Shown piece by piece: positions 8,773-58,068 of a stretch of DNA of 61,005 bases. The position numbers and the translations under genes were made by a program. The DNA lies in IMG/VR virus record IMGVR_UViG_3300046796_000499, positions 1 to 61,005 of that record; one strand, 5' to 3'. Origin of the DNA: a virus. Below the pieces are notes generated by a model. That model was not told where the DNA came from and ran no database searches. It was given only the letters and a program-made list of their open reading frames with translations. How positions within the stretch are numbered: position 1 is the stretch's first letter; each line of letters opens with the position of its first letter.

Positions 8773-10158
8773 TCAGCCGTGCTCGATGACCACCGCGCGC
8801 TTGAACCGGGCGCCGTCGCCCACCACCGCGTCGGAGGGGACGGGGAAGTCCCCGCTCCAGCTCCAGGTTTGGTTCACGACCTGCTGCAGCAAGTCCTGGG
8901 GCGCCCGGAGGATGTAGCGGATGCGCTGGGCCATGATGGCCACCCCGCCGTTGATGACGCTGAACTGGCCGATCTTGCCGTTCACCCCGGCCTCGGTGAT
9001 GAACTTGGACTCGTCCAGGAATTTCTCGTAGATGCAGCCGCCGCCCGTGACCAGCGCCCGGCGGATGGTGAGGCCCGCCTCGGTGGTGAGCTCGCCACCG
9101 ATCTGGCCCGTAGAGGTCGCCAGGCCACCGCCGCCCGCGTCGCTCACGATGGCCGAGGCCTTGACCGTGGACGAGTCCGGAAGCTCGGTGTTGCGGTAGA
9201 AAATGCACCCGACCGCCATCCCGATCGCCAGCGCCCGGTAGGAGGTGGAGTCCGGCAGGGATTGGTGCAAGCGCTGCCAATGGTTGTCTTGGAACAGCTG
9301 CTCCTCGGCCTGGGTCGTCAGGTGCACGTGGTAGTAGCCGTCCGCATGCGGGGGGACGTTCTGACCCCTCAACCGGCTCACCGCGCTGATGAACGTGTTT
9401 AGGGTCACAATGTTGACGGACGTGATGCCGTCGACCGTGAGGCCACCGCCGACCCGTAGCCGCCGCGAGCGCGAGGAGGCCAAGACGCCCGCGCGCTGGG
9501 CGATGCCCACCGAGGTCACCGCGCCGAGCGTGAGCGTGCCTTGCCCGAGGGGCTGCAAGGGATTGCTCGGGGCAAAGCCGATCACCGTATTGGCGGGCTC
9601 GGCCACCGTGAAGGTGACCGGAAGCGGGTTGCTCGGACTCACCGGCTGCAGCTGGCCGTTAACCAGCCGCTGGGTGAACCCGTTCAGGTTCGCCACCTGG
9701 ATCTGATTGACGGCCGCGCCGACCGCCGCGAGCGTCACCGTTTCGCCCTGCAGGTAGCTCTGGAACATCCGGTCGCGCACCAGACGGTTGAGCGTCTGGG
9801 CCGCGTGCAGGCCGAGCTTTTGGGTGTTCTGCAGGAACGTGGACGCCAGGCTCACATAGCTGGTGGGCATGTGGGTCGGGATCGTCTTGCCGAACTGGCG
9901 GGCCTCGGCCTCCCACTGCTCGGCGGTGTACTCGCCGGGGGTCGGATCCTGCCCGGGAACCAGCGGATCGGTTTCCGGCTCGATGAGCCCCGTACGGGTG
10001 AAGATCTGCCGCTCGCCCAGGTTCGCCTGCCACAATTCGGGCTTGGCTTCTCCCCGGAACAGCAGGTTCGGGAACAGGGAGTCGTGATACATGCGTTCCA
10101 GGGTGCGGTCCTGGATCATGCTCGAAATGATTGCGGGAATGCCTTGGACGATGGTCAA
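8773..10158 (-). CDS. Major capsid protein
   Basis: This 461-residue protein has the features of a myovirus-type HK97-fold major capsid protein. It begins with a helical N-terminal arm (MTIVQGIPAIISSMIQDRTL), a P-loop-like extended region (MPTSYVSLASTF) and a C-terminal A-domain-like segment (KIGQFSVINGGVAIMAQRIRY). The start is TTG at 10158, with AGGAG ten bases upstream, chosen because no ATG or GTG precedes the conserved N-terminus. It follows the scaffold-like gene, the standard order. Confidence 0.85.
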   Translation of the reverse strand: MTIVQGIPAIISSMIQDRTLERMYHDSLFPNLLFRGEAKPELWQANLGERQIFTRTGLIEPETDPLVPGQDPTPGEYTAEQWEAEARQFGKTIPTHMPTSYVSLASTFLQNTQKLGLHAAQTLNRLVRDRMFQSYLQGETVTLAAVGAAVNQIQVANLNGFTQRLVNGQLQPVSPSNPLPVTFTVAEPANTVIGFAPSNPLQPLGQGTLTLGAVTSVGIAQRAGVLASSRSRRLRVGGGLTVDGITSVNIVTLNTFISAVSRLRGQNVPPHADGYYHVHLTTQAEEQLFQDNHWQRLHQSLPDSTSYRALAIGMAVGCIFYRNTELPDSSTVKASAIVSDAGGGGLATSTGQIGGELTTEAGLTIRRALVTGGGCIYEKFLDESKFITEAGVNGKIGQFSVINGGVAIMAQRIRYILRAPQDLLQQVVNQTWSWSGDFPVPSDAVVGDGARFKRAVVIEHG

Positions 10159-21744: not shown

Positions 21745-23421
21745 TTACTCCTCCGCGCTGCCGTCGCCGCCCGGAACGCCGTTGCGTGCGTCCGCTTCCG
21801 ACTGCCGATCGATGAGCTGGCCTTGCTCCTCCACCTGGGTCGCGCGTTCCACGTCGATCTCCGCCAGCTCCTGGTCCACGTCCGTCACCCCAAACACCGG
21901 AGCGGTGAACTTCACCGCCGTGCGCTGGCTGATCGTCTGGCCCTTGGCCGCCACCGCGGCGGTCACCATCGCCTGGACGTCCGGCATCGTCGGCTGGAAG
22001 TAGGGCGGCCACTTGAGCTCGAGCCGATCGCTCTCGCCCGGGACCCGATCGGTCACCACCTCCTCGCTCTCGGCGGGGTCTCCGGGGGCCGCTCGGGGCT
22101 TGTCCTGGGTCTGCACCTTCGGCGGCAGCACCACCACCGGGCGCTGCTGGATCCGCACCCCGTCGGCGGTGGTCTGGATGGGGCCCGGCTCGATGCTCGT
22201 AATCAGCCGCGCCGCCCGGAGCATGCCGCGCAGCACCTTGACGATGAGCGCGCCGTACTGCACCCGCAGCAGGTCGCATTGGTTGCACATCGGCAGATAG
22301 AGCATTTTCATGGCGAGCGAGCTCTGGGCCTTGGCCGCCATCTTGTCCGGGTCACCGATGACCACCCCGGCCGTGTTCAGACAGACCCGCACGATGGCGT
22401 CCGCCTGATCGTTGCCCGTTTTGAGCGAGGTGCCCTGTAGCTCCAGATACTCGGCGCCGCCCTTGGCAAAAATGGCCTGCCCCGAGCCCTTCTGCACTAC
22501 CCCGAGGTTCTTGGTCGCGTCATCCTTGATGACGAGCGTGGGGTCCACGTTGGCGATCGTGCCCTTGGTGGTGGCGCTCAGTAGGTGGTTGATCTTGTCG
22601 AAATTGTCCTCCAGACCCTCGATGTCCGAGATCCCGTCCTCCCGCTCGGTGTCGGGTAGGTTCTGGGTCCAGTAGACCGGGCATTCGCCATAGCCGTGGC
22701 GCACCGTGTAGGAGCGGACTCCGGTCGCCCACGTCCCGGCCTTGGCGAGCTCGTCCGGGATCGGGTCCCACACCGTCTCGATCTGCTCATCCCAGTACCG
22801 GGCAAAATAGAAATCCTTTTCCACCGGTTTGCCGTCGGGCAGAAACACCGTCCGCTGGTAGCGATAGGTCTTGAGCACCGCGCCCAGGACGTGCTCGTCC
22901 TTGTCGACCCAGCGCTGGGGGTACATGTGTTTTGCCTCGTGGGCCTTCACCCGCGGCACCCCGTCCACGAAGCTGAAACTCAAGCACGCCGTTCCCGAGC
23001 CGCCGCCCTGGTTTCGCGCCTCCTGCATCCGCTCTTGTAGCCGGCTCTCGGTCGCCAGCGCCTTGACGTAATCCTCGGCCTCGTCATCGCCGGGAACCGT
23101 CACCTCCGGCCAGCTCTCCTCCCCCATCGCCATCGCCGTCAGGCGCCCAATGATGACTTTGCCGAGGTTATACCGGACGTTGGGGCGGCGCTTGTCCAGC
23201 ATCACGTAGTAGCCGGGAAACACCGCCTGCTCCCCGCCGTACCCGATGCCGTAGCCATCCCAGTTGTGTCTGAGCCGATCGTATTGCCGGCAGCTGGCGT
23301 ACTGGTCGAGCCGATCGAGGATCTGAAAGCGCCGCCCTTGACAGAGCGCATCGAGCCGCAGCCGGGGCAAGTCCGGCACGTTGAGCTGGAGGGTGTCGGC
23401 GGAATTGAGCGCTGCGGCCAT
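21745..23421 (-). CDS. Portal protein
   Basis: This 558-residue protein sits between terminase and MuF genes and has portal-like features: a long alpha/beta body with repeated WD-rich segments (DFYFARYWDEQIETVWDPIP), KINHLLSATTKGTIANVDPT, a helical stem-like part (AKAQSSLAMKMLYLPMCNQC) and an acidic disordered C-terminus. It forms the dodecameric DNA gate of the head. The start is ATG 23421, preceded by the 12-nt sequence shared with the tape measure gene. The assignment is firm from length and synteny. Confidence 0.85.
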   Translation of the reverse strand: MAAALNSADTLQLNVPDLPRLRLDALCQGRRFQILDRLDQYASCRQYDRLRHNWDGYGIGYGGEQAVFPGYYVMLDKRRPNVRYNLGKVIIGRLTAMAMGEESWPEVTVPGDDEAEDYVKALATESRLQERMQEARNQGGGSGTACLSFSFVDGVPRVKAHEAKHMYPQRWVDKDEHVLGAVLKTYRYQRTVFLPDGKPVEKDFYFARYWDEQIETVWDPIPDELAKAGTWATGVRSYTVRHGYGECPVYWTQNLPDTEREDGISDIEGLEDNFDKINHLLSATTKGTIANVDPTLVIKDDATKNLGVVQKGSGQAIFAKGGAEYLELQGTSLKTGNDQADAIVRVCLNTAGVVIGDPDKMAAKAQSSLAMKMLYLPMCNQCDLLRVQYGALIVKVLRGMLRAARLITSIEPGPIQTTADGVRIQQRPVVVLPPKVQTQDKPRAAPGDPAESEEVVTDRVPGESDRLELKWPPYFQPTMPDVQAMVTAAVAAKGQTISQRTAVKFTAPVFGVTDVDQELAEIDVERATQVEEQGQLIDRQSEADARNGVPGGDGSAEE

Positions 23422-25148: not shown

Positions 25149-26696
25149 CTAGCGTACCTGCAGCTGGGCTTGCTGGACGCGGGGCGCCGCATACTTGCGG
25201 AGCGCTTCGCGCGCGAGCCAGGACGCCATCAGCCGATCGCCGGTGTGCGCCTCGGGGTCGTAATAGAGCGCCTCGTTCATCCAGGCTTTGCCCTCGTCCG
25301 GCACGCTCAGGCCCGCGCCGCCCGAGGGAAGGATCCAGAGGCCGTTGCGCATTTCGACCGCCAGGCTTTCCACCCCGAATTTCTCGCTGAACTTGCGGCT
25401 GGCGGTGGTGGTGTAGCCGCGCACCGGCACCCGGCCCTGGCACATATCGAGCAAGAACTGCTGGGCGCCGTTGTCCTCCACCAGGATCTCCGAATCGAAC
25501 CGCAAATAGACACTCACCAGCCGATCGATGATCTCGGGCGCCTGCCAGCGGCCGCTCTCGATGTCCGCCACGAGCCGGCGCCCGTCGGGCATCAACGCGA
25601 GCGTAAACAGCACCGTGAGCGCGTTGGCATCCTCCACCCCTGCTCCCAGGTCGACGCCCGTAAAGCAGGGCAGCTTGGGGCCCTTGCTGTAGGCGGAGGG
25701 AGCTCGCGGCAGGAACGTCCGGCCCTTGCCGGAGAGCACCATCCGGTCGAGCCAGACCTGCCGAAAGCGCGAGGAGGAATCGATGCGCACCCGGCAGAGG
25801 TGCTTGCGGACGAATACCGATTCGGGGGTGATCTGGCGCTTGGCGAGCAGGCGCCGCACGCTCCAGTTCTCTGGCCAGAGCGGGATCCAGCGCTTGGGCG
25901 GATCGTCGGGATTGGTGACCGCGCTGTAACGCTTGGTCACGAACCCGGGCCGCGCCCCGAGCACGTGTAGGGCATCGTCGGGATGCCACGGCGTGCCCAC
26001 CATGATGAACCGCGCCAGCTCGGTCAGGCGCGTGAGCACGGTGGTGTCGATCCAGTCGACGGTCTTTTTTCGCTGCTCCTCGGTGCGGGTGTTCTCGAAA
26101 TCGAGAATGTCGTCCAGGATCACCCAGTCCAGGCGCGAACCCACCAGAGGCCCAAACAGCCCCATCGCCTGGATGCTCGGGTCTTTCGAGCGGGTCTTTC
26201 GCTCGACCGTGATCGCGCTCGTGTGCCAGGGGTCCTCGTCCCGAGAGCTCGGCTTGAGGTGCGGGAACACCTCGCGCACCCGCGGGTTGCGCTCGATCTC
26301 GGTGCGGACCTGCCGGAGGACTTTCTCCGCCTGGGTGCTGGTGACGCTGATGATCGCGCCGCGCTGCTCGGGGTGCGTCCCGAGCAGGTGGAGCACCTTG
26401 CCCACCGCTACCTGCTGGGTCTTACCGAACTCGACCGGGCAGATCAGGATCGCGAGGCGGTTTTCCTCGAGGTGCTCGTGCCATTCCTCGTGGAACGGGG
26501 CGTTCCGTAGGACGGTGTCGTCCTGTTCGTTCCGGAGCGCGTACTCGATGAACGCCGCCGCGCTCCGGCGGGCCGCGCGGATCTGCAGCTGCTTTTTGAC
26601 CCGGTGCCGCCGCAGCCGATCGGCGCGCTTGGCCTCCCCTCGGGCCGCGCGTGCCGCCACCTCGGCCGCCGCGCGCGCAAACGGTGGTCGCTTCAC
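25149..26696 (-). CDS. terL: Terminase large subunit
   Basis: The 515-residue protein has an N-terminal ATPase and a C-terminal nuclease. The P-loop is a variant, CPVEFGKT (residues 86-93), Walker B is LDWVILDD (189-196), and the coupling motif is MVGTPWH (232-238). The nuclease has Asp349 (TGVDLGAG), VEDN (406-409) and a late Asp in GDRLMASWLA. It cuts and pumps DNA into the head. The start is GTG 26696; an upstream ribosome site is not visible. The usual order, TerL before portal, is kept, but a clear TerS is about 9 kb upstream. Confidence 0.92.
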   Translation of the reverse strand: MKRPPFARAAAEVAARAARGEAKRADRLRRHRVKKQLQIRAARRSAAAFIEYALRNEQDDTVLRNAPFHEEWHEHLEENRLAILICPVEFGKTQQVAVGKVLHLLGTHPEQRGAIISVTSTQAEKVLRQVRTEIERNPRVREVFPHLKPSSRDEDPWHTSAITVERKTRSKDPSIQAMGLFGPLVGSRLDWVILDDILDFENTRTEEQRKKTVDWIDTTVLTRLTELARFIMVGTPWHPDDALHVLGARPGFVTKRYSAVTNPDDPPKRWIPLWPENWSVRRLLAKRQITPESVFVRKHLCRVRIDSSSRFRQVWLDRMVLSGKGRTFLPRAPSAYSKGPKLPCFTGVDLGAGVEDANALTVLFTLALMPDGRRLVADIESGRWQAPEIIDRLVSVYLRFDSEILVEDNGAQQFLLDMCQGRVPVRGYTTTASRKFSEKFGVESLAVEMRNGLWILPSGGAGLSVPDEGKAWMNEALYYDPEAHTGDRLMASWLAREALRKYAAPRVQQAQLQVR

Positions 26697-41432: not shown

Positions 41433-42095
41433 TCAGAACGGAATGTCGTCATCGTCCACCGCGTGAGGGGGCACCCGCGCCGGGGGCTCCTCGAACCCGT
41501 CGTCCTGATACTCGTCCCCTCCCGCCGGCACGGCATCGCTCGGATCCACCGCATCGTCCTCGGGATTGCGCGAGCTCCGCTGGCTCCGGACCGCCTGCTG
41601 GGCCAGGTATTCCTCCGCCCAGACGTGCCAGGTCTCCACCCAGTTCTTTTGGAACACGAACTGGCCGATCTCGTTATTGGCGTACTGGCCCCGATTGTCC
41701 GCCCGCACCTCGGCCGCGAACGGCACGCGCTGAAAGAGTCGCCGGATGTTGTCGTCCCCCTCCGCGTCCAGCTCCTCGTCCTGATGGCCTTGGGCATCGA
41801 GCCCCCCGAGCTCGAAATCCGACTCCTCGATCCCGCACGCGTCTTTCCAGATCTGCCAGCGCGTCACCGTCCCCGGGCGGCCGAAATCGAGGTTCATCAG
41901 GGTGAAAAACGCTTCGCCCTTGCACCGCCCGCCGATGATCTCGAGCTTGATGTTCAGGTATGGCTTGCCGCCCTCGCGGCTCGTCCGCCGCTGAAACCAG
42001 GTGAGGGCCATCAGATAAGTCCCCGCCCGGACCAGCTTGCGCTCGCTGCTGCTGCCGCCTCCGCCGCTCCGGCCTCCGCCGCCGAGCCGCGCCAT
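41433..42095 (-). CDS. DUF669 protein with single-strand-binding-type acidic tail
   Basis: The 220-residue protein has the DUF669 pattern: VRAGTYLMALTWFQRRTS, then LNIKLEIIGGRCKGEAFFTL and MNLDFGRPGTVTRWQIWKDA. It ends in DDDDIPF, the acidic and aromatic tip typical of single-stranded-DNA-binding proteins, which recruits partners. A role in recombination-dependent replication with the adjacent Sak4-like ATPase is likely. The ATG overlaps the previous stop (TAATG). Confidence 0.85.
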   Translation of the reverse strand: MARLGGGGRSGGGGSSSERKLVRAGTYLMALTWFQRRTSREGGKPYLNIKLEIIGGRCKGEAFFTLMNLDFGRPGTVTRWQIWKDACGIEESDFELGGLDAQGHQDEELDAEGDDNIRRLFQRVPFAAEVRADNRGQYANNEIGQFVFQKNWVETWHVWAEEYLAQQAVRSQRSSRNPEDDAVDPSDAVPAGGDEYQDDGFEEPPARVPPHAVDDDDIPF

Positions 42096-43287: not shown

Positions 43288-43956
43288 TCAGTTCAGACCG
43301 GGCAAGCGTTGCTGCCGGCTGTCCTCGATCGCCTCGTTCAAGGCCTCGAGCGCTGCCTTGACGTCATCGCGCGCGCCCTTTTTCTCCTCGATGTTCTCCG
43401 CCTTGGCGTCGCTCCACTCGCCCCAGCGCACCGTGCAGGCATCGAGCTTTTCCCGATACGCCGCGAGCTCCACCACCCCCACGGGCAACGGTGCCTCGAT
43501 CGCGTTGGTAAACGCCGCCTCCGCGCCCTTCACCCGCTGGCCGCACTCGGTCGAAACCCGGGCCTTTTTTTCGAGCGCTCCCGTCCACTTGCCATGGGCT
43601 TTTTGAATCGATTTGAGCAGCTTGCTGGCGTCCGCATCGCCCGATTCCCCGCGCGCCTGCAGCTCCGCCGAGCGTACCCGCACCAGCCGCTGGGGCTTGG
43701 TCTCCTTGGCCGGTGCCGCTGCCTTCTTTTTGGCGGCTCGGCTCGCCTTGGTCTCGGGTGCCTTGGCCTGGGTTTTCCCCTTCTTGCTCGCCTTGCCGTC
43801 GCCGTTCTTGCTGCCCGGGGGGCGGCCGAGCTTGCGCTTGGGGGCTGCCTCTGGGGCGCCCGGCACCGGCTCGTCCTCGAGCTCAGAACGGGTCAGGGGC
43901 TGGACGAGAGACAGATTGCGCGCTCCATTGTTCAATTCCGAATCCGCCATCACCAT
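43288..43956 (-). CDS. AT-hook-like basic protein (222 aa)
   Basis: ATG 43956 has GAGGAG upstream. Residues about 40-100 are Lys/Ala-rich, with KRKLGRPPGSKNG, an AT-hook-like RPPGS motif that binds the minor groove. A helical C-terminal domain (KKARVSTECGQRVKGAEAAF, about 130-215) follows. It lies after the nuclease gene, whose last 74 nt it overlaps. It may be a DNA-binding accessory of replication; that is inference. Confidence 0.62.
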   Translation of the reverse strand: MVMADSELNNGARNLSLVQPLTRSELEDEPVPGAPEAAPKRKLGRPPGSKNGDGKASKKGKTQAKAPETKASRAAKKKAAAPAKETKPQRLVRVRSAELQARGESGDADASKLLKSIQKAHGKWTGALEKKARVSTECGQRVKGAEAAFTNAIEAPLPVGVVELAAYREKLDACTVRWGEWSDAKAENIEEKKGARDDVKAALEALNEAIEDSRQQRLPGLN

Positions 43957-45220
43957 GATCGAGCTCCTCGTGGCGAGTCGTTGCCACCCGAAATGCCGCC
44001 CGCGCCTCCGGATCTTCCGGCGAGGCACAGACCCCTGCATATACGCATTTAGGGCTGCCCGGTCCAGTGCAGGCATAGGGGTTTCGGGTGCGGAGCGTCG
44101 GGTCCCGCTCGGCCGCGCGGATCGCCTTGGCCTCCACCCACATCTCTTGGCGCCAGCGCTCGAGCTCGGCGGGCCCGCGGAAAAACTCGAACTGCTGAAA
44201 ATAGGGGTTGGCCTTGGCCTCGAGCGCCGCCAGGCGCGCCCGCTGCTTGTCGGTGACCGGTTGGTGCCGCTCCCGCACCTGCTCGTCCAGCGCCCGCTGG
44301 TAGACCCGGGGCAGGGTGTCGATGTCCGCCGCGGAGACCTCGCCCCGGTTCACCTCATCCTGCTCCTGGGCGTGGTAGAGCCGGGAGAGAGGGGTATCGA
44401 GCGCCGCCGCCTTGGCCGCCATCCGCAGCTGGTTCACGCTCGGGACTCCCGGCTTGGCCCGCCGCGACACGTTGAACCGGATTAGCCCCGCCGTGCTGCG
44501 CCAGATGGCCGCGCGCTCGCGCTCCATCAACCCGCGCACCGCGGGGGTGGTTTGGTTCCAGAATCCGCTCCCCCAGCCCGCAACGGAAACGCGCGCGAGC
44601 AGCACCTGTAGCGCCCGGAGGTAGCCCGTCGGCTGGGTGAGCAGCTGCAGCCGGCCCTCGTAGGTCTGCACCGCATAGCCCGAGGTCTTGTGCTCATCGA
44701 GCAAGATCTGCGAGGCCCGCCGATCCCAGAGCACCAGATCCATCTTGCCGTTTTGGTGCAGGTGGCCCCCCTGGCCCGCACGCGTGGGGATCGGCACGTC
44801 GAACCGGGCCTCGATGGCGAGCGGCACCAGGTCCAGGTCCTCCTGCCGCCGCTCGAAATAGTGCACCGTTGCCCACTGAGCGATTTCGGTCTGCTCGGTC
44901 AGCTCCTCGAGCGCCTGCTGCTGCCGGTCGCCTTCTGCCTCGGTCTCGAGCCGGGTCCGGTGCTCGGCGCTCGCCTGGTGGATCGCCAGCATCGCCCCCG
45001 AGCACGCCCGGTGCAATCGGTCGGTCGTGGATAGCTCGAGCTCGCTCCAGGCTGCCCGCCAGCCCGCGTCACAGCCGAGGTGATAGAGCGTGCCATAGGA
45101 GAGCTCCAAGGGCTGCTCGAGGGGCCGGAGGAGCTCCGCATCGCGGTAACCCCAGTACGCCCGACATTTTCTGAAATCCTCGATCTCGCTGTTGGTGATG
45201 ACGTGTAGATGCCGCCTCAT
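43883..45220 (-). CDS. PD-(D/E)XK nuclease with Fe-S-type cysteines
   Basis: The 445-residue protein is Cas4/AddB-like. Cys19 (DFRKCRAYW) and a late triplet Cys384, Cys392, Cys398 (CTGPGSPKCVYAGVC) fit a 4Fe-4S cluster. The catalytic set is Asp161 (KMDLVLWD), Glu176-x-Lys178 (DEHKTSG) and an RLQLLTQPTGYLRA segment (190-203). Such enzymes resect DNA ends for annealing; the partners here are the Sak4-like and DUF669 proteins. It overlaps the next start by 4 nt. Confidence 0.85.
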   Translation of the reverse strand: MRRHLHVITNSEIEDFRKCRAYWGYRDAELLRPLEQPLELSYGTLYHLGCDAGWRAAWSELELSTTDRLHRACSGAMLAIHQASAEHRTRLETEAEGDRQQQALEELTEQTEIAQWATVHYFERRQEDLDLVPLAIEARFDVPIPTRAGQGGHLHQNGKMDLVLWDRRASQILLDEHKTSGYAVQTYEGRLQLLTQPTGYLRALQVLLARVSVAGWGSGFWNQTTPAVRGLMERERAAIWRSTAGLIRFNVSRRAKPGVPSVNQLRMAAKAAALDTPLSRLYHAQEQDEVNRGEVSAADIDTLPRVYQRALDEQVRERHQPVTDKQRARLAALEAKANPYFQQFEFFRGPAELERWRQEMWVEAKAIRAAERDPTLRTRNPYACTGPGSPKCVYAGVCASPEDPEARAAFRVATTRHEELDHGDGGFGIEQWSAQSVSRPAPDPF

Positions 45221-45411: not shown

Positions 45412-47154
45412 TCACACCCCACCAAACACGAGGTCCACCGCCTCGTCCTTGGCCGCGCCCTTGGCTGCCGCCGCCTGCCACCTCTGGCCCTCGGCCAGAT
45501 TGTCGATGCGCGCCACGCCCGCCAGCTCGCGTTTTTGCTCGGCCGAAAAATCGCTTTCGATGGCCACCCCGTACACCTGGGCCCCCACCTTGCCGAGCTG
45601 CTCCACCGCCGTACCCCAGCCGCCGCCGCCATCGGTCACCAGGATCACGTCCGCTTTGCTCCAGGCGCCCTTGCCGAGCTCGCCCCGCGCCCAGTCGAGC
45701 GGAGGGGCGAACGCCGTCCCGCCGCCCGAGAAGTAACTCACCATCTCGATGAGCTCGGACAAGGTGAGGCGCCGCTTCGGCTCCACCAGGAACGTGGCCT
45801 GGACCGAGGAATCGAAATGGCAGAGGCCGAATCCCCGCTTTTGGATCGCACAGATCTCCATCAGGGCCAGGCCAACGGCCATTGCCCACTCGTTGCGCGC
45901 GCCCGTCATGCTGCCCGAGCCATCCACCAAGAGCAGGATCGGGCCCTGGTCCTCGCTCTCGCGGCCCTCCATCTGATACTCGAGCGCCTGGCGTTCCACC
46001 AGCTTGCGCAGTAGCAGGAGCTCGGTCTCCTCGGCCGCGAGCAACACCAGCTCGCTCGGCAGCAGGCGCGCCAGCTCGGCCCCGATCGTCACGTCCACGA
46101 TCTGCTCGGGCACATAGTTCACCTTGGTGCGCTGCTTGGCGCGCGCCCGCATCCGCAGCCGCCCCGCGAGCTTGGCGATCCGCTGCAGCTTCGGATCGGC
46201 CGCCAGCGCCTTTCGGACCTGCTCGCTCGGGGCGTTCACCGCCGAGAGTACCCCGGGGCCACCGCCGGCGCCCAGGCCCGCCATTGCCAGCTGAAGATCC
46301 TCGATCTGATCGGCCGCCGCGTCCGCCGCCACGCGCACCGCTTGGCGGATCGCGAACTCCACCCGCTCCTTGCCGAGTTCCGTGCGCAACGCCTCGGCCT
46401 GCACCTCGGCCTGGCGGGCTTGATCGTCTTTCATCACCCCCGCGCCCGGGGCCATCTCATCGAGCTCGGCCGCCTCCTGCTCGAGCCGCCCCGGATCTTG
46501 CTGGGGGGCGAGCTTGCGGATCGCCTCGTCCAGCACCTTGCCCAAGGTCTCGGTCACCCGCCCCGCGCCGATGCCCGCCGCCCACGGATCGCCCTCGCAC
46601 CGCGCCTCGAGGTCCTCCCACTCGCTCACCTGGCCCACCTGCTCGTGGATGGCCTCGAGCCACTGGTCGCCCGCTGCCACCTCATCGAGCGCCGCCGCGC
46701 CGCCGTAGAGCCGCGCGAACAGCTCGCGCTCGAGGCCCGGCCACTGCTCGACCGCGTGGCGCTCGACCGCGTGGCGGTAGACACCCTGCTCGTCCGCCTC
46801 GCGCGCTGCCAAGCCGCGCACGAATGGATCGACCGCGAGGGTATGATCGCGGCCCGCCTCGAGCAGCTCCCGGCGCTTTTCCCAGACCAGCTCGGGCGCC
46901 AGCTTTTCCCCCGCGAACTGCACCAGCGGCACGTAATCCCGGCCGTTGGCGTAGCACTCGAGCATTCGCCGACCGTCGGCCTCGAACTGGGCTGCGGGCA
47001 GATTGGCTAAAATCTTGCCGTCCTTGTCCACCAGGTTCCAGGACACCGCCTCGGTTTTGCCCGAGGGGCCCGCCGCCATCACCGAGCGGGCCGTGTAGGT
47101 CCCTTCGGAACCCTTCACCGTGATCGGCTGGGGGCGATTCGTCAGCTGCACCAT
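45412..47154 (-). CDS. VWA-domain protein, ViaA-like partner of the adjacent MoxR ATPase
   Basis: ATG 47154 (MVQLTNRPQPITVKG) has a leader hairpin and GAAAG-type run. The 580-residue protein has a helical N-terminal part (about 100-270) and a C-terminal VWA domain (about 400-570) with an intact metal site: DGSGS (411-415), Thr480 (GGGTAF) and Asp508 (VTDGGGG). The pattern GPILLLVDGSGSMTGARNEW is close to ViaA. In bacteria RavA-ViaA acts as a chaperone pair on membrane-linked targets. Here its function is unknown but probably shared with the ATPase next to it. Confidence 0.85.
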   Translation of the reverse strand: MVQLTNRPQPITVKGSEGTYTARSVMAAGPSGKTEAVSWNLVDKDGKILANLPAAQFEADGRRMLECYANGRDYVPLVQFAGEKLAPELVWEKRRELLEAGRDHTLAVDPFVRGLAAREADEQGVYRHAVERHAVEQWPGLERELFARLYGGAAALDEVAAGDQWLEAIHEQVGQVSEWEDLEARCEGDPWAAGIGAGRVTETLGKVLDEAIRKLAPQQDPGRLEQEAAELDEMAPGAGVMKDDQARQAEVQAEALRTELGKERVEFAIRQAVRVAADAAADQIEDLQLAMAGLGAGGGPGVLSAVNAPSEQVRKALAADPKLQRIAKLAGRLRMRARAKQRTKVNYVPEQIVDVTIGAELARLLPSELVLLAAEETELLLLRKLVERQALEYQMEGRESEDQGPILLLVDGSGSMTGARNEWAMAVGLALMEICAIQKRGFGLCHFDSSVQATFLVEPKRRLTLSELIEMVSYFSGGGTAFAPPLDWARGELGKGAWSKADVILVTDGGGGWGTAVEQLGKVGAQVYGVAIESDFSAEQKRELAGVARIDNLAEGQRWQAAAAKGAAKDEAVDLVFGGV

Positions 47155-47157
47155 GAT

Positions 47158-47198
47158 CCGTTTCCGCTTTCTGCCGGGCCGCTCGGGGCGCCCTGGCT
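47158..47198 (-). promoter_or_regulatory. Stem-loop/GAAAG leader of the VWA gene
   Basis: Minus-strand GGGC/GCCC arms (47176-47179 with 47190-47193) are followed by GGCAGAAAGCGGAAACGG and ATG 47154. The stem is longer and less regular than in other copies. Confidence 0.5.
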
Positions 47199-47217
47199 CG
47201 TTCATCCTAGCAGGCTT

Positions 47218-48375
47218 TCAGAGCCCGAGCACCTGGCGCGCCGATTCCCGGACGGGGCCGAGCGCGCCGTCCAGTTGCTTGGCCATGGCCAAGATCTTCT
47301 CCTTCTTGCGCGGGTTGCGGCTCTCTTCGGCCAGCTTGCGGATCTCCTTGAGGGCCCGGTTTCCGTCCCGGTTGCAGGCCACCAGAGCGTCCTGGTAGCT
47401 CTTGTCCGGACCGCTCACCGGCATCGCCGGCAAGGCCTGGATCGTCTCCAGCATCAAATCCCGCTTGCCGCTCGCCTCCCCGATCGCCCCCGCACTCACC
47501 TTGCCCACCACCTTGGCCACCGTCTCGCGCTGCTCGGGCGCATCCCAGAGCACATCGGCCAGCACCCCGAAATGGTCGTCCCCCACCTCGATGTCCCCCG
47601 AAAGCCAGGCATTGGCCCGCAGCAGGTTCACCGAGCGCTTGAGGCGCCGATCGGACGGATGGATCCCGGCCTTGCCGAGCTCCGCCCGCACGTTCCAGAG
47701 CGACTGCTGCGCCGTCCGGGGAAAATCGACCGCGCGCACCGCCGCCCGGGCCGCGTCCCACTCGGTGAGCGAGAGCAGCGGGCCCAGGGCCTCCTCGCTG
47801 CCGGTCAGCACCGCGAAAAACGCCTCGGGCGTCCGCACGCGTTCCACCCAGTACCGCACCAGAAACCGATCGTAGAGCGCGCCGAGCTCCGCCCCCTCGG
47901 GTAGCTCGTTGGAGGCGCCCACCGCCATCCGGAGCGGGATGTCCAGCGCGGCGGGGCCGTTGTGGAACTTGCGCTCGTTCAGGGCGGTGAGCAGCGTATT
48001 GAGCACGCCGGAATTGCTTTTGAAAATCTCGTCCAGAAACGCCACGTGGGCGTGTGGGAGCTTGCCGGTCGTGACCCGCTCGAACCGGTCGGCCTTCAAT
48101 CCAGAAATGCTGATGGGACCGTAGAGCTCCTCGGGTGAGCTGAACTTGGACAGCAACCACTCGAAATACTGGGCCTCCCCCACCGCGGAACAGAACTCGC
48201 GCGTGAGCGCGCTCTTGGCCGTCCCCGGAGGCCCGAGCAGTAGCACGTGCTCGCCTGCCAGGGCGGCGCACACCATCCCCTCGATGACTGCCTGGCGCTC
48301 CTGAAAGCGCGAGGTGAGCCGCGCCGAGAGCGCGAGAAACCGATCGACCAGCCCCGAACCATTACCGTCCGCCAT
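47218..48375 (-). CDS. MoxR/RavA-type AAA+ ATPase
   Basis: ATG 48375 (MADGNGSGLVDRFLALSARL), with a GAAAGGGA run upstream, gives 385 residues. The motifs are Walker A LGPPGTAKS (47-55), Walker B FLDE (113-116), sensor 1 Asn156 (GASNE) and Arg170 (YDRF). The run SPEELYGPISISGLKADRFE, FLDEIFKSNSGVLNTLLTAL and ASNELPEGAELGALYDRFLV closely resembles RavA. It is followed by its VWA partner, as in the RavA-ViaA operon. It should form a hexamer that remodels a protein target, which is not known. Confidence 0.92.
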   Translation of the reverse strand: MADGNGSGLVDRFLALSARLTSRFQERQAVIEGMVCAALAGEHVLLLGPPGTAKSALTREFCSAVGEAQYFEWLLSKFSSPEELYGPISISGLKADRFERVTTGKLPHAHVAFLDEIFKSNSGVLNTLLTALNERKFHNGPAALDIPLRMAVGASNELPEGAELGALYDRFLVRYWVERVRTPEAFFAVLTGSEEALGPLLSLTEWDAARAAVRAVDFPRTAQQSLWNVRAELGKAGIHPSDRRLKRSVNLLRANAWLSGDIEVGDDHFGVLADVLWDAPEQRETVAKVVGKVSAGAIGEASGKRDLMLETIQALPAMPVSGPDKSYQDALVACNRDGNRALKEIRKLAEESRNPRKKEKILAMAKQLDGALGPVRESARQVLGL

Positions 48376-48376
48376 T

Positions 48377-48418
48377 TTTCCCTTTCTGGGCGCCCGCGGC
48401 ATCGATGCCCCGCGCCAG
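48377..48418 (-). promoter_or_regulatory. Stem-loop/GAAAG leader of the MoxR gene
   Basis: The minus strand shows an extended hairpin built around GGCATCGATGCC (48399-48410) with outer CTGG-CGC/GCG-CCCAG pairing (one bulged base), then AGAAAGGGAAAA and ATG 48375. Confidence 0.6.
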
Positions 48419-49650: not shown

Positions 49651-49880
49651 CCGTAGGCCTCCTCGGGCAGCTCGCCCGTGCTCACCCAGGCCCGGACCTG
49701 GTCCTCGTACTGCCGCCGCATCGGTGAGCCCACGATGCCCGCATAGGGCCCCGAGGGGCCCAAGGGGAAGGTCAGTCCCGCCACGCGCCGCGCCTTGCCC
49801 TGGGACCGCACCCAGAACGATAGGCCCCGCTCGCCCCAAGAGGCGAACCGCACCGGCGGGCGATAGGACTCAAGGTGCAT
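49647..49880 (-). CDS. Unknown small protein (77 aa)
   Basis: ATG 49880 with GGAGAGG upstream gives MHLESYRPPVRFASWGERGL. A Trp/Gly-rich beta segment (LSFWVRSQGKARRVAGLTFP) and a C-terminal helix are visible. It overlaps its upstream neighbour by 11 nt. It is not recognised. Confidence 0.6.
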   Translation of the reverse strand: MHLESYRPPVRFASWGERGLSFWVRSQGKARRVAGLTFPLGPSGPYAGIVGSPMRRQYEDQVRAWVSTGELPEEAYG

Positions 49881-50859
49881 CGAGGAGCCTCTCCACCTCC
49901 GCCCGTGCGCCCTCGATCTCCTCCCCCAGCTCGTCCGCGATGCCGCCGAGCACGTCGCGAAAGAGCTCGACCCGAGCCGAGAGCTGCCGATAGGCGTCCG
50001 CGCGAGTGACCACGCTGCGCTCCTGGCGCTGGGCGAGCGGAGTGCCCGCGCGAAATTCGGAGACTTCCTTTTTGAGCTCTGCCAACTGCAGCTGGAAGGA
50101 CGCCCGCGCCGCCTTGCCCGCCGCCTGCAGGTTGTCGGATGAGCCCGTGATCGTGAGCACGTTGATCTCGCACTTCGGCGCGAGCCGCTCCACCACGCTC
50201 CGGAGCGCGTGCAACACCGGCAGCTTGCTGCCATGGACGAAATACAGGCCGCCCGTGGTTTGCCGGAGGCTCACCGCGCCGAGCAACTGGTCCCGCGTCG
50301 TCCCATGCATCGCGTTCACCAGGATCGCGCCCAAATCGCTCGTGTTCAAGTACGAGCGGGTTTCGGCGAACTTTTCCTCCACCTCCCGTGCAAGAGGCAT
50401 CACCAGTGCGAGCGCCTCGGCCGGCGCCTGGAATTTCCAGTCGAGCTCCGGAGCGGGCCGCTCGGGGTGCCGCTCGCGCCGCCGCTCCACCATGATCTCC
50501 ATGGGATCGGCCACGACCGTGGCCGCGTGCACGTGCTTGAGTTTGCCCGGCTGGGCCGGGTCCGGGCTCTCGAGCACCAGCGCCCAGCCCTTGGCTACCT
50601 TGCGCATCAGCACGTTGGGCTTGCCCACCTGCACCTGGTGCACCGCCGTGGTCAGGCTCGCGCTGTGCCGCGGATCGCGAGACATCGCCGCGCCTAGCCC
50701 TGCCTCACCGAGTGCCGCCCGCAGTGCGGTCCGCTCGATGCGTACCCCGGCAAGGGACCAGAACACGAGCGCGCCGATCGTGCGGTGGCCGCCGGAGGCG
50801 AGGAAATCCCCGAGGTGCGAAAGGGTGTGGTTGGAGGTGTCGAGCGATTGGGCTGCCAT
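49870..50859 (-). CDS. Unknown protein in the MoxR-VWA neighbourhood (329 aa)
   Basis: ATG 50859 has a stem-loop/GAAAG leader. The 329-residue protein starts MAAQSLDTSNHTLSHLGDFL, has an alpha/beta N-terminal half (about 20-230, with GSKLPVLHALRSVVERLAPK) and a C-terminal coiled coil (about 255-329, SFQLQLAELKKEVSEFRAGT). I cannot assign a family with certainty. It heads the run of genes that leads to the methyltransferase and the MoxR and VWA genes, so it may be a third partner; that is inference. Confidence 0.65.
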   Translation of the reverse strand: MAAQSLDTSNHTLSHLGDFLASGGHRTIGALVFWSLAGVRIERTALRAALGEAGLGAAMSRDPRHSASLTTAVHQVQVGKPNVLMRKVAKGWALVLESPDPAQPGKLKHVHAATVVADPMEIMVERRRERHPERPAPELDWKFQAPAEALALVMPLAREVEEKFAETRSYLNTSDLGAILVNAMHGTTRDQLLGAVSLRQTTGGLYFVHGSKLPVLHALRSVVERLAPKCEINVLTITGSSDNLQAAGKAARASFQLQLAELKKEVSEFRAGTPLAQRQERSVVTRADAYRQLSARVELFRDVLGGIADELGEEIEGARAEVERLLDAP

Positions 50860-52592: not shown

Positions 52593-52931
52593 TCAGCTGC
52601 CCCTGGGTGGTTCGATACCCGGCAGGGTCGTCCGATCGGGGGTGGAGGCCTCGCGCGCCTGCTGGATGAGCGCGCGGGCTTTCTCCTCGGTCAGCTTCGG
52701 GTTGTTTGCCCGCAGCGTCGCCACCGCCCAGGCGTCCACCGTCTCGGATGCGACGTTGCCCGCGAAGCTCTGGCCGAGCTCGTTGGCCTCGGTGTGCGCC
52801 TGGGCCGCCTCCGCCTCCCAACGGTGCTGACGGCTCTGCAGCCACGCCCGGATCGCTCCCGCCACCACCGGCACCAGCGCCAGCAGTGCTGCCGTCACCC
52901 CCGGCCCGATGCTTTTCCAAAATTCGCCCAT
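52593..52931 (-). CDS. Holin candidate (LLH-type, one membrane segment)
   Basis: I use ATG 52931 (MGEFWKSIGPGVTAALLALV); ATG 52940 is possible. Residues 8-27 are hydrophobic (IGPGVTAALLALVPVVAGAI), followed by an Ala/Glu helix and a C-terminal segment (AVATLRANNPKLTEEKARAL) reminiscent of the LLH-type holins. It lies 58 bases from the divergent endolysin gene. The pairing with an endolysin is the main support; holin homology is moderate. Confidence 0.6.
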   Translation of the reverse strand: MGEFWKSIGPGVTAALLALVPVVAGAIRAWLQSRQHRWEAEAAQAHTEANELGQSFAGNVASETVDAWAVATLRANNPKLTEEKARALIQQAREASTPDRTTLPGIEPPRGS

Positions 52932-52989
52932 GGTTTCCATTGTACCATCGCGGAACAAATCGGCCGTTCACCCGCAAGGGGATTTGACT

Positions 52990-53784
52990 ATGCCCAAGAC
53001 GATCCAACCGACTGCCCCCGATCCGGATATCGAGCAGCTCCAGCGCACGCTCCAGCGCCTCGGCTATGGCCAGGGCATCCAGGTCACCGGCTACCCGAGC
53101 CAGGAGCTCTGGAGTGCCGTGGCGCTCTTTCAAATGCAGCACCTCGGGCCCTCGAGGCTACCGCTCGAGCCCGACCGCATCGTGGGCCAGTCCACCTGGT
53201 GGGCCCTGGCGAACCCGTCCGGGCCGCTGCAGCGCTCGGGCTATGCCCTGGCGCTCTCGCCCCGTGACCAGCTCACCCCGGGCCGCCTGGCGCTGCAGGA
53301 GGCTTTCGTGGCCGAGTACCGCAAGGACGTCCACGAGGAGCCGGACGGCAGCAACCGGGGCCCGCAGATCGACTCCTATTGGGGCAACACCGGCCTGCTC
53401 GGCCAGTCGTGGTGCTGCGCTCTGGTCTCCACCCTGCTCTTGCGCGCGCTCGGCCACTACCCGCTCGGCTACCATCACACCAGTGTCTCGGGGATGGTGG
53501 CCTGGGCCAAGGCCCACGATCGGCTGACCCGGGTGCCCAAGCCGATGGATATCTGGGCCATCGTCCATGCCGATGGCACGGGCCACACCGGCGTTGCCCC
53601 CGCGATCGATGACCTGGCGAGCGTGTTTGCGACCTTCGAAGGCAACTGTGGAAACCGTCTCAAACACGGGCGCCGGCAGTTTGCCGACGCCCTGTTTTGG
53701 ATCGACCCGTTCCAGGACGAGCAGCCCCCCCTCTATCAACGTTTGCCCGAGCTCGAACAGCTCGCCGCCCAGGCCACGCGCTAA
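52990..53784 (+). CDS. Endolysin: PGBD + CHAP-like hydrolase
   Basis: ATG 52990 with AAGGGGA upstream gives 264 residues. Residues about 13-80 form a peptidoglycan-binding domain (DIEQLQRTLQRLGYGQGIQV, then ALFQMQHLG). The rest looks like a CHAP/NlpC-type hydrolase: GQSWCCALVSTLLLRAL holds the candidate catalytic Cys (about 143), GHTGV the His (about 199) and FEGNCGN the third residue. It would cleave wall peptides at lysis. There is no signal peptide, so it depends on a holin. Confidence 0.82.
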   Translation: MPKTIQPTAPDPDIEQLQRTLQRLGYGQGIQVTGYPSQELWSAVALFQMQHLGPSRLPLEPDRIVGQSTWWALANPSGPLQRSGYALALSPRDQLTPGRLALQEAFVAEYRKDVHEEPDGSNRGPQIDSYWGNTGLLGQSWCCALVSTLLLRALGHYPLGYHHTSVSGMVAWAKAHDRLTRVPKPMDIWAIVHADGTGHTGVAPAIDDLASVFATFEGNCGNRLKHGRRQFADALFWIDPFQDEQPPLYQRLPELEQLAAQATR

Positions 53785-56928: not shown

Positions 56929-58068
56929 TCAGAGGCCGTTCACTGTCACGAGGTCCAGGCTCGTTTTGATGACCTCCTGATCTGCCGGCTGGATGTCCCC
57001 CGCCGGCAGCTGCACCGCCGCGTCCCCCACGATGGCCCCGGGGATGCTGCGGGCGAGCGCGAACAGGAGCGAGCGCTGCAGCGGCTCGCGCGGAAAGAGG
57101 GTATTGACCGCCGCCACCGTGATGGCCTTCAATTGATTGACGGCCGCCCGGGTGTCGGTGCCCGAACGGAACGAGATCTGGTAGGCGATGGTCTCGAGCC
57201 GGGGCCGGGTGGTGAACACCGGCACGATGATCCCGCCCGCGCGGAACTCCCGGAGGCGCTGGTTGACCGCCGCCGTCAGCACCTGGTTGCTCCGGCCGAG
57301 CTCGTCCGCCACGAATAGCCGGACCTCGCCGGTGGGCAAGCCATCGAGCCCCAGGATCTCCTCGGCCGTGGCGGCCACCACCCCGTCCACCCCGAGCGCG
57401 CCGGCCTCGATCGCCGGCAGGGTCCCGCGCCGGGCCGTCACGAAAAACAGCCGCGCGCGAGCCCGGAGGCTCGCGTCCGTCTCGATGTCCGTACCGCCGC
57501 TCGCCGGCTCGGGGTTGGTGACCAGGATCGTCGCGTCCGCCGGGGTCTGGCTGAATTGGCGGATCTCCCCCTGCTCCACGTTGCCCCCCGTGCCGCTCAG
57601 CACCGCCTGGGCCCGGACCGAGATAGGGCCCGTGGAATTGAGCGGGAAGCTCGCCGCCTCGGTGAACGCGTACTCGGTGCCCCCGGTCGTGCGGACCTTG
57701 GTGCCCACGTCCAAAGTCACCACCGCCCCGGAGCTCGGCGGGATGGGACGGGTCAGCTCGAGCGGCACCACCGCCTGGGCCGATTGCTTGCGGACGATCT
57801 CGGGACTGAAGCGATCGGCCACCAGCCGATCGAGGTCCTCGTCCTCGGCCGAATCGAGGTAGAGCGCCGCCATCCGCAGCGCCAGGTGGCGGAGCGTTTC
57901 GTCCCCCATCGCGCTGCAGGCGGCCAGCACGATGTTGATGTCCGTGCCCGGGGTGAACACCGCCTGGGGCGAAACGCGCGCGCCGGGCGGGCGGTTCTGA
58001 CCTCGGGAAAAGACTTCGCCGGCGCCGACCTGGAACAGGTCCTCGCGGGTCGGGAGCGCAGCCACCAT
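56929..58068 (-). CDS. Baseplate J-like (gp47-type) protein
   Basis: The 379-residue protein has the J pattern: GTDINIVLAACSAMGDETLR in the N-terminus, DEDLDRLVADRFSPEIVRKQ, SVRAQAVLSGTGGNVEQGEI, TNPEPASGGTDIETDASLRA and the helical C-terminus AVNQLKAITVAAVNTLFPRE. It assembles the baseplate wedge around the hub. It follows the gp25-like gene, as in Mu and P2. Confidence 0.88.
   Translation of the reverse strand: MVAALPTREDLFQVGAGEVFSRGQNRPPGARVSPQAVFTPGTDINIVLAACSAMGDETLRHLALRMAALYLDSAEDEDLDRLVADRFSPEIVRKQSAQAVVPLELTRPIPPSSGAVVTLDVGTKVRTTGGTEYAFTEAASFPLNSTGPISVRAQAVLSGTGGNVEQGEIRQFSQTPADATILVTNPEPASGGTDIETDASLRARARLFFVTARRGTLPAIEAGALGVDGVVAATAEEILGLDGLPTGEVRLFVADELGRSNQVLTAAVNQRLREFRAGGIIVPVFTTRPRLETIAYQISFRSGTDTRAAVNQLKAITVAAVNTLFPREPLQRSLLFALARSIPGAIVGDAAVQLPAGDIQPADQEVIKTSLDLVTVNGL

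What the first reader, a model, noticed from the sequence alone, without database searches (positions are those of the whole stretch)
45412..48375. Phage-encoded RavA-ViaA-like MoxR ATPase and VWA pair
The ATPase (47218-48375) has intact Walker A/B, sensor and Arg-finger residues and a RavA-like body, and the VWA protein (45412-47154) has an intact metal site (DGSGS, Thr, Asp). Bacterial RavA-ViaA is a chaperone-like pair; MoxR-VWA pairs also form the core of several proposed conflict systems. A phage copy next to a DNA methyltransferase, a small HTH gene and an unknown 329-aa protein could protect against host defence or remodel a virion or host membrane complex.
Basis: partly seen in the sequence, partly recalled or inferred. 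Interest (0 to 1): 0.75.

Follow-up and report, generated by a model that had tools for sequence, protein, structure and literature searches.

The report
Phage ATPase–adaptor–DUF6744 recombination cassette
This phage carries a ring-shaped molecular motor (MoxR), its metal-binding adaptor (VWA) and a third protein of unknown structure (DUF6744) as a conserved three-gene unit beside its DNA-recombination genes; the motor probably remodels the phage's own recombination proteins, and this three-part unit appears to be undescribed.

Summary
The pair is real: a MoxR AAA+ ATPase and a VWA protein, one operon, on a tailed-phage record. Walker A/B, sensor 1, Arg finger and MIDAS residues are intact and near-invariant in 84 distinct viral relatives; VWA lies within 4 kb on the same strand in 82. 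It is not RavA-ViaA: only the AAA+ and VWA modules match, and LARA and RavA C-terminal domains are absent. Methyltransferase and HTH neighbours are not conserved. The 329-aa protein (Pfam DUF6744) is: it accompanies the pair in 59/84 viral contigs, and DUF6744 genes found independently sit beside a MoxR/VWA pair, twice of an unrelated type. In the window's clade the order is DUF6744–MoxR–VWA–PD-(D/E)XK exonuclease–Sak4-like–SSB. DUF6744 has a confident model with no PDB counterpart. In a sister lineage its C-terminal helical tail recurs on the YqaJ exonuclease and on the next gene's product; all ten tail-bearing exonuclease loci with enough upstream DNA carry the cassette. Best explanation: an ATP-driven remodeller of phage recombination/replication complexes with DUF6744 as dedicated partner (~0.5). 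Rivals: virion-assembly chaperone, counter-defence. New variant of a known kind. Unexpected: 15 relatives lacking DUF6744 carry a reverse transcriptase instead.

The parts
47218..48402 (-). MoxR-class AAA+ ATPase, 394 aa (385 aa if started at 48375)
   Evidence: Pfam bpMoxR 4e-57; phrog_19600 1.6e-74; nearest solved structure RavA, AAA+ part only; tree places it in a starred clade of 10 phage ATPases, apart from RavA
48211..48234 (-). Walker A GPPGTAKS (residues 57-64)
   Evidence: sequence; catalytic Lys 83/83 in relatives
45412..47205 (-). VWA adaptor protein, 597 aa (580 aa if started at 47154)
   Evidence: VWA_2 3.8e-7; phrog_24053 1.5e-34; AlphaFold2 pLDDT 87; best PDB fold match is the NorD VWA in the NorQD AAA+ complex
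45511..45939 (-). VWA domain (residues 423-565)
   Evidence: Pfam
45910..45924 (-). MIDAS DGSGS (residues 428-432); T497 and D525 complete the site
   Evidence: sequence; near-invariant in relatives
49870..50859 (-). DUF6744 protein, 329 aa: third component of the cassette
   Evidence: Pfam PF20529 2.8e-8; homologue in 59/84 viral MoxR-VWA contigs; AlphaFold2 pLDDT 90, no PDB fold match at E<=0.001
49879..50139 (-). C-terminal helical tail of DUF6744 (residues 241-327)
   Evidence: tail family recurs on YqaJ exonucleases and adjacent proteins of sister phages
43883..45220 (-). PD-(D/E)XK exonuclease, syntenic neighbour directly after VWA
   Evidence: Pfam PDDEXK_1 1.1e-7, phrog_1218 exonuclease 1.2e-23; same order in relatives
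43288..44076 (-). 262-aa ORF between exonuclease and Sak4-like gene; start uncertain because it overlaps the exonuclease
   Evidence: homologues only in the close clade L014, L015/L016, L020, L034
42095..43174 (-). Sak4-like / AAA_24 recombinase
   Evidence: AAA_24 4.8e-12, phrog_124 Sak4-like 5.3e-14
41433..42095 (-). DUF669 / SSB-like protein
   Evidence: DUF669 0.00047, below Pfam cut-off; phrog_378 ssDNA-binding 0.0089; syntenic in relatives

Best explanation
The three genes encode an ATP-driven remodelling machine for the phage's own DNA recombination/replication proteins. MoxR forms the hexameric ring (inferred from the family). The VWA protein is its adaptor: its C-terminal VWA domain docks on the ring as in NorQD and grips a client through the MIDAS metal (inferred from fold match and residues). 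DUF6744 is the dedicated third partner, working on or beside DNA with exonuclease, annealing/recombinase and SSB proteins. ATP cycles pull or twist on the VWA adaptor to load, activate or take apart that complex. Shown: pair and intact sites, conservation of the cassette, its place in the recombination operon, the shared DUF6744/exonuclease tail in a sister lineage. Inferred: physical complex, client identity, direction of remodelling.
For: Cassette conserved: VWA in 82/84, DUF6744 in 59/84 viral MoxR contigs, against 9/59 cellular ones. Independent reverse test: DUF6744 loci retrieved without using MoxR/VWA lie beside a MoxR/VWA pair wherever the contig reaches (L212, L213, L214/L215, L218); in L213 and L214/L215 the pair is an AAA_5 plus DUF2201 metallopeptidase-VWA type, so DUF6744 follows the function and not just the lineage. 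Operon order DUF6744-MoxR-VWA-exonuclease-Sak4-SSB kept in the window's clade and in L005, L037, L218; VWA-MoxR plus these genes in L019, L022, L028. Recombination genes found in 24 of 84 loci, 21 of them with DUF6744. Moorella phage MTATph1: near RNR, resolvase, UvsX, helicase. A clean DUF6744 tail model finds, among 20,627 ORFs, only YqaJ exonucleases (1e-8 to 1e-3) and the following gene's product in L004 and L100 (0.0045, 0.0021) outside DUF6744; all 10 tail-bearing YqaJ loci (9 distinct) with enough upstream DNA have the cassette, while tail-less YqaJ L240 (98-kb record) and four cultured phages lack it. One DUF6744 has a SAP domain and L003's ends in a histone-H1-like KAPAKK tail, fitting DNA work. 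VWA model's best fold match is NorD of NorQD; finger-in-pore mechanism from PMC13036017.
Against: No interaction or phenotype data. 60 of 84 loci show no recognised recombination gene by my three profiles within reach. The tail is not detected on the window's own exonuclease. L123 has the cassette and a tail-less YqaJ. DUF6744 is absent from 25 of 84. Tail-bearing YqaJ contigs L230, L232, L233 show no MoxR, although each breaks off 0.3-1.4 kb upstream of the exonuclease. DUF6744's fold gives no direct functional clue.
Confidence: 0.5

Rival explanations
1. Virion-assembly chaperone: the MoxR-VWA pair remodels a head or tail protein, as shown for p618/p892 of Acidianus two-tailed virus and proposed for jumbo phages.
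For: The only experimentally studied viral MoxR-VWA pair I know of acts in tail development (reviewed in PMC4124505); Iyer et al. propose the same for jumbo phages (PMC7824862); a MoxR-like ATPase was found in virions of a Staphylococcus jumbo phage (PMC10638138).
Against: Here the genes lie in the recombination operon, away from terminase, portal, head and baseplate genes, and this synteny is conserved. The shared tail joins DUF6744 to an exonuclease, not to a structural protein.
Confidence: 0.18
2. Counter-defence or inter-phage conflict system related to the MoxR-vWA ternary systems, with DUF6744 as sensor or effector.
For: The ATPase is of the bpMoxR family and has the GxxxTAKS P-loop variant described for the beta-propeller and FtsH systems; in a separate viral clade the third gene is a reverse transcriptase, a common defence enzyme.
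Against: RavA hits bpMoxR just as strongly, so that family name is not diagnostic. VWA ends after its VWA domain, with no propeller or effector module. No PADLOC match. DUF6744 is a stable partner, not an exchanged effector.
Confidence: 0.15
3. Metal insertion or metabolic chaperone, like NorQD or CobST, acting on a phage or host metalloenzyme.
For: Closest fold match of the VWA is NorD; haloviruses carry a CobS/CobT-like pair (PMC8651126).
Against: No candidate metalloenzyme was found in the conserved neighbourhood; DUF6744 has no resemblance to a chelatase or reductase.
Confidence: 0.07
4. Stolen host RavA-ViaA that copies the host's respiratory/stress role.
For: The AAA+ module is closest to RavA among solved structures.
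Against: LARA and RavA_C domains absent, scores far under the family cut-offs; the tree separates it from RavA with starred support.
Confidence: 0.04

Closest known systems
RavA-ViaA (E. coli/Salmonella)
   Same: MoxR AAA+ module (NCBIfam RavA 4.8e-67 over residues 17-300) next to a VWA protein matching ViaA over its VWA region (1.3e-22)
   Different: No LARA or RavA C-terminal domain; far under curated cut-offs; has DUF6744 partner and recombination neighbours; separate clade
NorQ-NorD
   Same: VWA model's best PDB match is NorD's VWA (E 1.4e-5, target TM 0.59); works-like candidate for finger-in-pore twisting (PMC13036017)
   Different: No nitric oxide reductase client; similarity is of fold, 17% identity, about 275 columns
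ATV p618/p892 and jumbo-phage MoxR-vWA pairs
   Same: Virus-encoded MoxR ATPase plus VWA protein
   Different: ATV pair acts on tail development; ATV ATPase is distant (30% over 41% of the query); the jumbo-phage vWA carries a metallopeptidase domain (PMC7824862); the passages read mention neither DUF6744 nor a recombination link
MoxR-vWA ternary conflict systems (VMAP, iSTAND, FtsH, beta-propeller; Kaur et al. 2020, PMC7159879)
   Same: MoxR + vWA + third protein; bpMoxR family; GxxxTAKS P-loop
   Different: No VMAP, iSTAND, FtsH or beta-propeller component and no effector modules; encoded in a phage recombination operon
Moorella phage MTATph1 (OR602862)
   Same: Only record among 50,697 phage records in which the whole cassette was found: DUF6744 (CDS0119), ATPase (CDS0115), VWA (CDS0114)
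   Different: Two of the three are annotated hypothetical; no paper found

Membership tests
MoxR-class AAA+ ATPase | Walker A/B, sensor 1, Arg finger, MoxR-type core and AAA_lid_8 | tested here: met
MoxR-VWA pair | adjacent co-directional VWA gene with intact MIDAS | tested here: met
   82/84 relatives, residues intact
MoxR-VWA pair | physical ATPase-VWA complex, VWA-stimulated ATPase | not testable with these tools
   needs purified proteins
RavA (PRK13531 / NF010054) | LARA domain PF20265 and RavA C-terminal PF12592 | tested here: not met
   window ATPase has neither; Salmonella RavA control hits both
RavA (PRK13531 / NF010054) | curated family score of 681 bits | tested here: not met
   227 bits; control 986 bits
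ViaA (PRK10997 / NF008230) | curated family score of 500 bits over full length | tested here: not met
   80.7 bits over residues 334-525 only; control 862 bits
[quoted passage not shown]
   VWA ends about 30 residues after the domain; no propeller hit (definition)
beta-propeller MoxR-vWA ternary system | third component with TPR/propeller and variable N-terminus | tested here: not met
   third component is DUF6744
Known anti-phage defence system | match to a PADLOC model beyond the generic methyltransferase | tested here: not met
DUF6744 (PF20529) | score above the Pfam cut-off of 27 bits | tested here: met
   33.5 bits; 59/62 aligned homologues match the family at E<=0.01

The most novel reading that the evidence does not exclude
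The DUF6744 tail is a transferable client tag: a C-terminal helical hairpin by which phage recombination proteins (DUF6744 itself, YqaJ exonuclease, the following protein) are recognised by a MoxR-VWA machine that loads or strips them during recombination. This would be a client-tag system for a MoxR ATPase and a new kind of recombination mediator.
Probability: 0.25. Interest if true: 0.82.

Novelty: new variant of a known kind. Interest (0 to 1): 0.6.

Why it matters
MoxR-VWA pairs are widespread yet have few known clients, and none that I know of in DNA recombination. A compact three-gene phage unit with a third partner of unmatched fold, tied by synteny and a shared tail to exonuclease/annealing proteins, makes a concrete and testable client hypothesis, assigns a first context to DUF6744 (no paper found), and adds a possible motor to phage recombination. 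It also flags records that call VWA proteins 'HNH endonuclease'.

Tried and rejected
RavA-ViaA identity: rejected. Methyltransferase, HTH and 198-aa ORF as parts: rejected, no homologue in any locus. A full second DUF6744 copy fused to YqaJ: first seen, rejected as profile contamination; a clean profile shows only the last about 70 residues are shared. DUF6744 in N4-like phages: LUZ7 ORF36 tested, it is another AAA protein. CL131 gp148 as DUF6744: it is LPD29. HVTV-1 AAA/VWA as orthologues: my profiles do not hit them; PMC8651126 describes the AAA/vWA pair of this virus family as CobS/CobT. DGR or known retron RNA at the reverse-transcriptase loci: no direct repeats of 40 b or more and no Rfam retron. 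Window tail on other window-clade proteins: none significant. Whole-family DUF6744 alignment as DNA scan query: not conserved enough, so subsets were used. Single-protein VWA scan found nothing. PDB fold search with DUF6744: nothing at E<=0.001.

Full report
OBSERVATION. The window is a 61,005-base virus record, 68% GC, without terminal repeats, from a tailed phage with a baseplate gene: terminase (25149-26696), portal (21745-23421), major head (8773-10158), baseplate wedge (56929-58068) and endolysin (52909-53784, +) are recognisable. The ATPase start at 48375 is supported by an AGAAAGGG stretch; the VWA start is open between 47205 and 47154. Pfam gives bpMoxR 4e-57 and VWA_2 3.8e-7; the 329-aa ORF is DUF6744 at 2.8e-8. 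PHROGs already hold phage families for ATPase and VWA (phrog_19600, phrog_24053).

RELATIVES. Scans with ATPase and VWA alignments returned 80 and 46 viral loci and 80 cellular ones. After removing duplicates, 84 viral MoxR contigs remain: 82 have VWA within 4 kb, all on the same strand, median gap 17 nt. Catalytic and MIDAS residues are near-invariant. So the pair is under strong selection as a working machine.

THE THIRD GENE. An iterated profile of the 329-aa protein found homologues beside the pair; with a clean profile 59 of 84 viral contigs have it (order UMV 38, MVU 14, MUV 5, two others), 59/62 aligned homologues match DUF6744, against 9 of 59 cellular loci. The reverse test used DUF6744 alone as query: L212 and L218 have the same pair; L213 and L214/L215 have DUF6744 next to an AAA_5-type ATPase and a DUF2201 metallopeptidase-VWA protein, a different kind of MoxR-VWA pair. 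L220 is a 6-kb fragment and cannot be judged. HVTV-1 gp25 is a DUF6744 (3e-19), there with an AAA_5/VWA pair about 15 kb away. The methyltransferase, HTH and 198-aa ORF have no homologue in any locus.

NEIGHBOURHOOD. In the window's clade DUF6744-MoxR-VWA is followed by PD-(D/E)XK exonuclease, Sak4-like AAA_24 and DUF669/SSB-like genes, then an O-like replication initiator. Recombination genes of these three profiles occur in 24 of 84 contigs, 21 with DUF6744. Moorella phage MTATph1 has the cassette among RNR, resolvase, thymidylate synthase, UvsX and helicase genes; Aphanizomenon phage CL131 has MoxR-VWA next to a sliding clamp.

STRUCTURES. DUF6744: AlphaFold2 pLDDT 90, pTM 0.84, an alpha/beta N-terminal part, a second alpha/beta part with the conserved GGxYFVP motif and a long C-terminal helical tail; no PDB match at E<=0.001, four related viral predictions including an HVTV-1 protein. 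VWA protein: pLDDT 87; best PDB match the VWA of NorD in NorQD, also Midasin MIDAS. In NorQD a finger of the VWA enters the ATPase pore and the C-terminus contacts the ring (PMC13036017); that the phage pair does the same is inference.

SHARED TAIL. A profile of the DUF6744 tail alone, searched against 20,627 ORFs, hits outside DUF6744 only the C-termini of YqaJ-type exonucleases in L127-L130, L004/L110 and L100 (1.4e-8 to 1.1e-3) and of the protein encoded directly after YqaJ in L004 (0.0045) and L100 (0.0021); the remaining hits are weaker, and of those the only one under 0.01 is a fragment in L027 (0.0098) that lies where DUF6744 is expected. In L127-L130 the gene after YqaJ is RecT-like (L130: Pfam RecT 7.2e-23). 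A scan with these exonucleases found 14 loci: 13 have the tail; the 10 with at least 6 kb upstream all carry DUF6744-MoxR-VWA (L234 and L235 are the same sequence there), three end 0.3-1.4 kb upstream and cannot be judged; L240 lacks the tail and its 98-kb record lacks MoxR. Exonucleases of Salinibacter, Arthrobacter, Geobacillus and Parageobacillus phages lack the tail and show no cassette in the stretch examined. L123 shows that the cassette can exist with a tail-less YqaJ, so the rule is one-way. The tail-bearing exonucleases are one related group, so these are not independent events. The window's own exonuclease has no detectable tail.

MECHANISM. Most likely a remodelling machine for recombination/replication proteins: VWA as adaptor between ring and client, DUF6744 as DNA-side partner (one homologue carries a SAP domain; L003's ends in an H1-like basic tail). 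The shared tail suggests either a tag read by the machine or a common oligomerisation module; the data do not separate these.

MEMBERSHIP AND NOVELTY. MoxR-VWA pair: yes. RavA-ViaA: no. Beta-propeller ternary system: no, although the P-loop variant is shared. The bpMoxR label also fits RavA, so it says little. A maximum-likelihood tree puts the window ATPase in a starred clade of ten DUF6744-bearing phages, apart from RavA (many deeper forks are weak). Viral MoxR-VWA pairs are known (PMC4124505, PMC7824862, PMC7911831), but no paper in the library mentions DUF6744 and I found no account of this cassette or its tail. I file it as a new variant of a known kind.

UNEXPECTED. Of 25 viral contigs without DUF6744, 15 carry a reverse transcriptase (RVT_1 2.4e-20) downstream of VWA, 12 within about 3 kb; none with DUF6744 does (Fisher 2.2e-10, but the 15 lie in one part of the tree, so they are few independent events).

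Noticed in passing
L047, L051, L061, L067, L076-L078, L080, L087, L115, L122, L125 (and L107, L113, L117 farther off): Viral MoxR-VWA loci without DUF6744 carry a reverse transcriptase (RVT_1; PQGAxxSP, YCDD and VTG motifs, retron-like) downstream of VWA; none of the DUF6744-bearing loci does. No DGR-type repeats (two loci checked) and no Rfam retron RNA (six loci). Possible second cassette type in large phages.
   Followed up: partly
L226 (Pseudomonas phage LUZ7) 7264-10020; N4-like phages carry an AAA ATPase (N4 gp24-like) and a DUF2201-type VWA relative (N4 gp25-like) next to helicase and DNA polymerase genes: another phage AAA-VWA pair in a replication module.
   Followed up: partly
phrog_1314; phage records: The family named HNH endonuclease (phrog_1314) matches the VWA part of the window protein, and DUF2201-VWA relatives in Vibrio phage records are annotated HNH endonuclease: likely a spreading misannotation.
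   Followed up: partly
L013 (Campylobacter phage A11a, MG065691), H2, H4, H5; L085: Enterobacterial RavA-ViaA genes inside unverified phage records and a RavA-like gene in an IMG/VR contig look like host DNA contamination.
   Followed up: no
L216 9815-10966 (HVTV-1 gp25): DUF6744 (3e-19) in a cultured haloarchaeal tailed virus, on the other strand and about 15 kb from its AAA_5/VWA pair; a tractable system for DUF6744.
   Followed up: partly
window 46831-47160 (VWA residues 16-125): N-terminal beta-rich domain of the window's VWA protein has no detectable homologue in any other locus, even close relatives.
   Followed up: partly
L184, L139, L144, L146, L154 (Myxococcota/Anaeromyxobacter), L176, L183, L195, L198: DUF6744-MoxR-VWA cassettes on bacterial and archaeal contigs; whether these are proviruses was not determined.
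   Followed up: no
L010 758-1600 (CL131 gp148): LPD29 domain protein directly before MoxR-VWA and a sliding clamp in Aphanizomenon phage CL131: a further candidate third partner.
   Followed up: no
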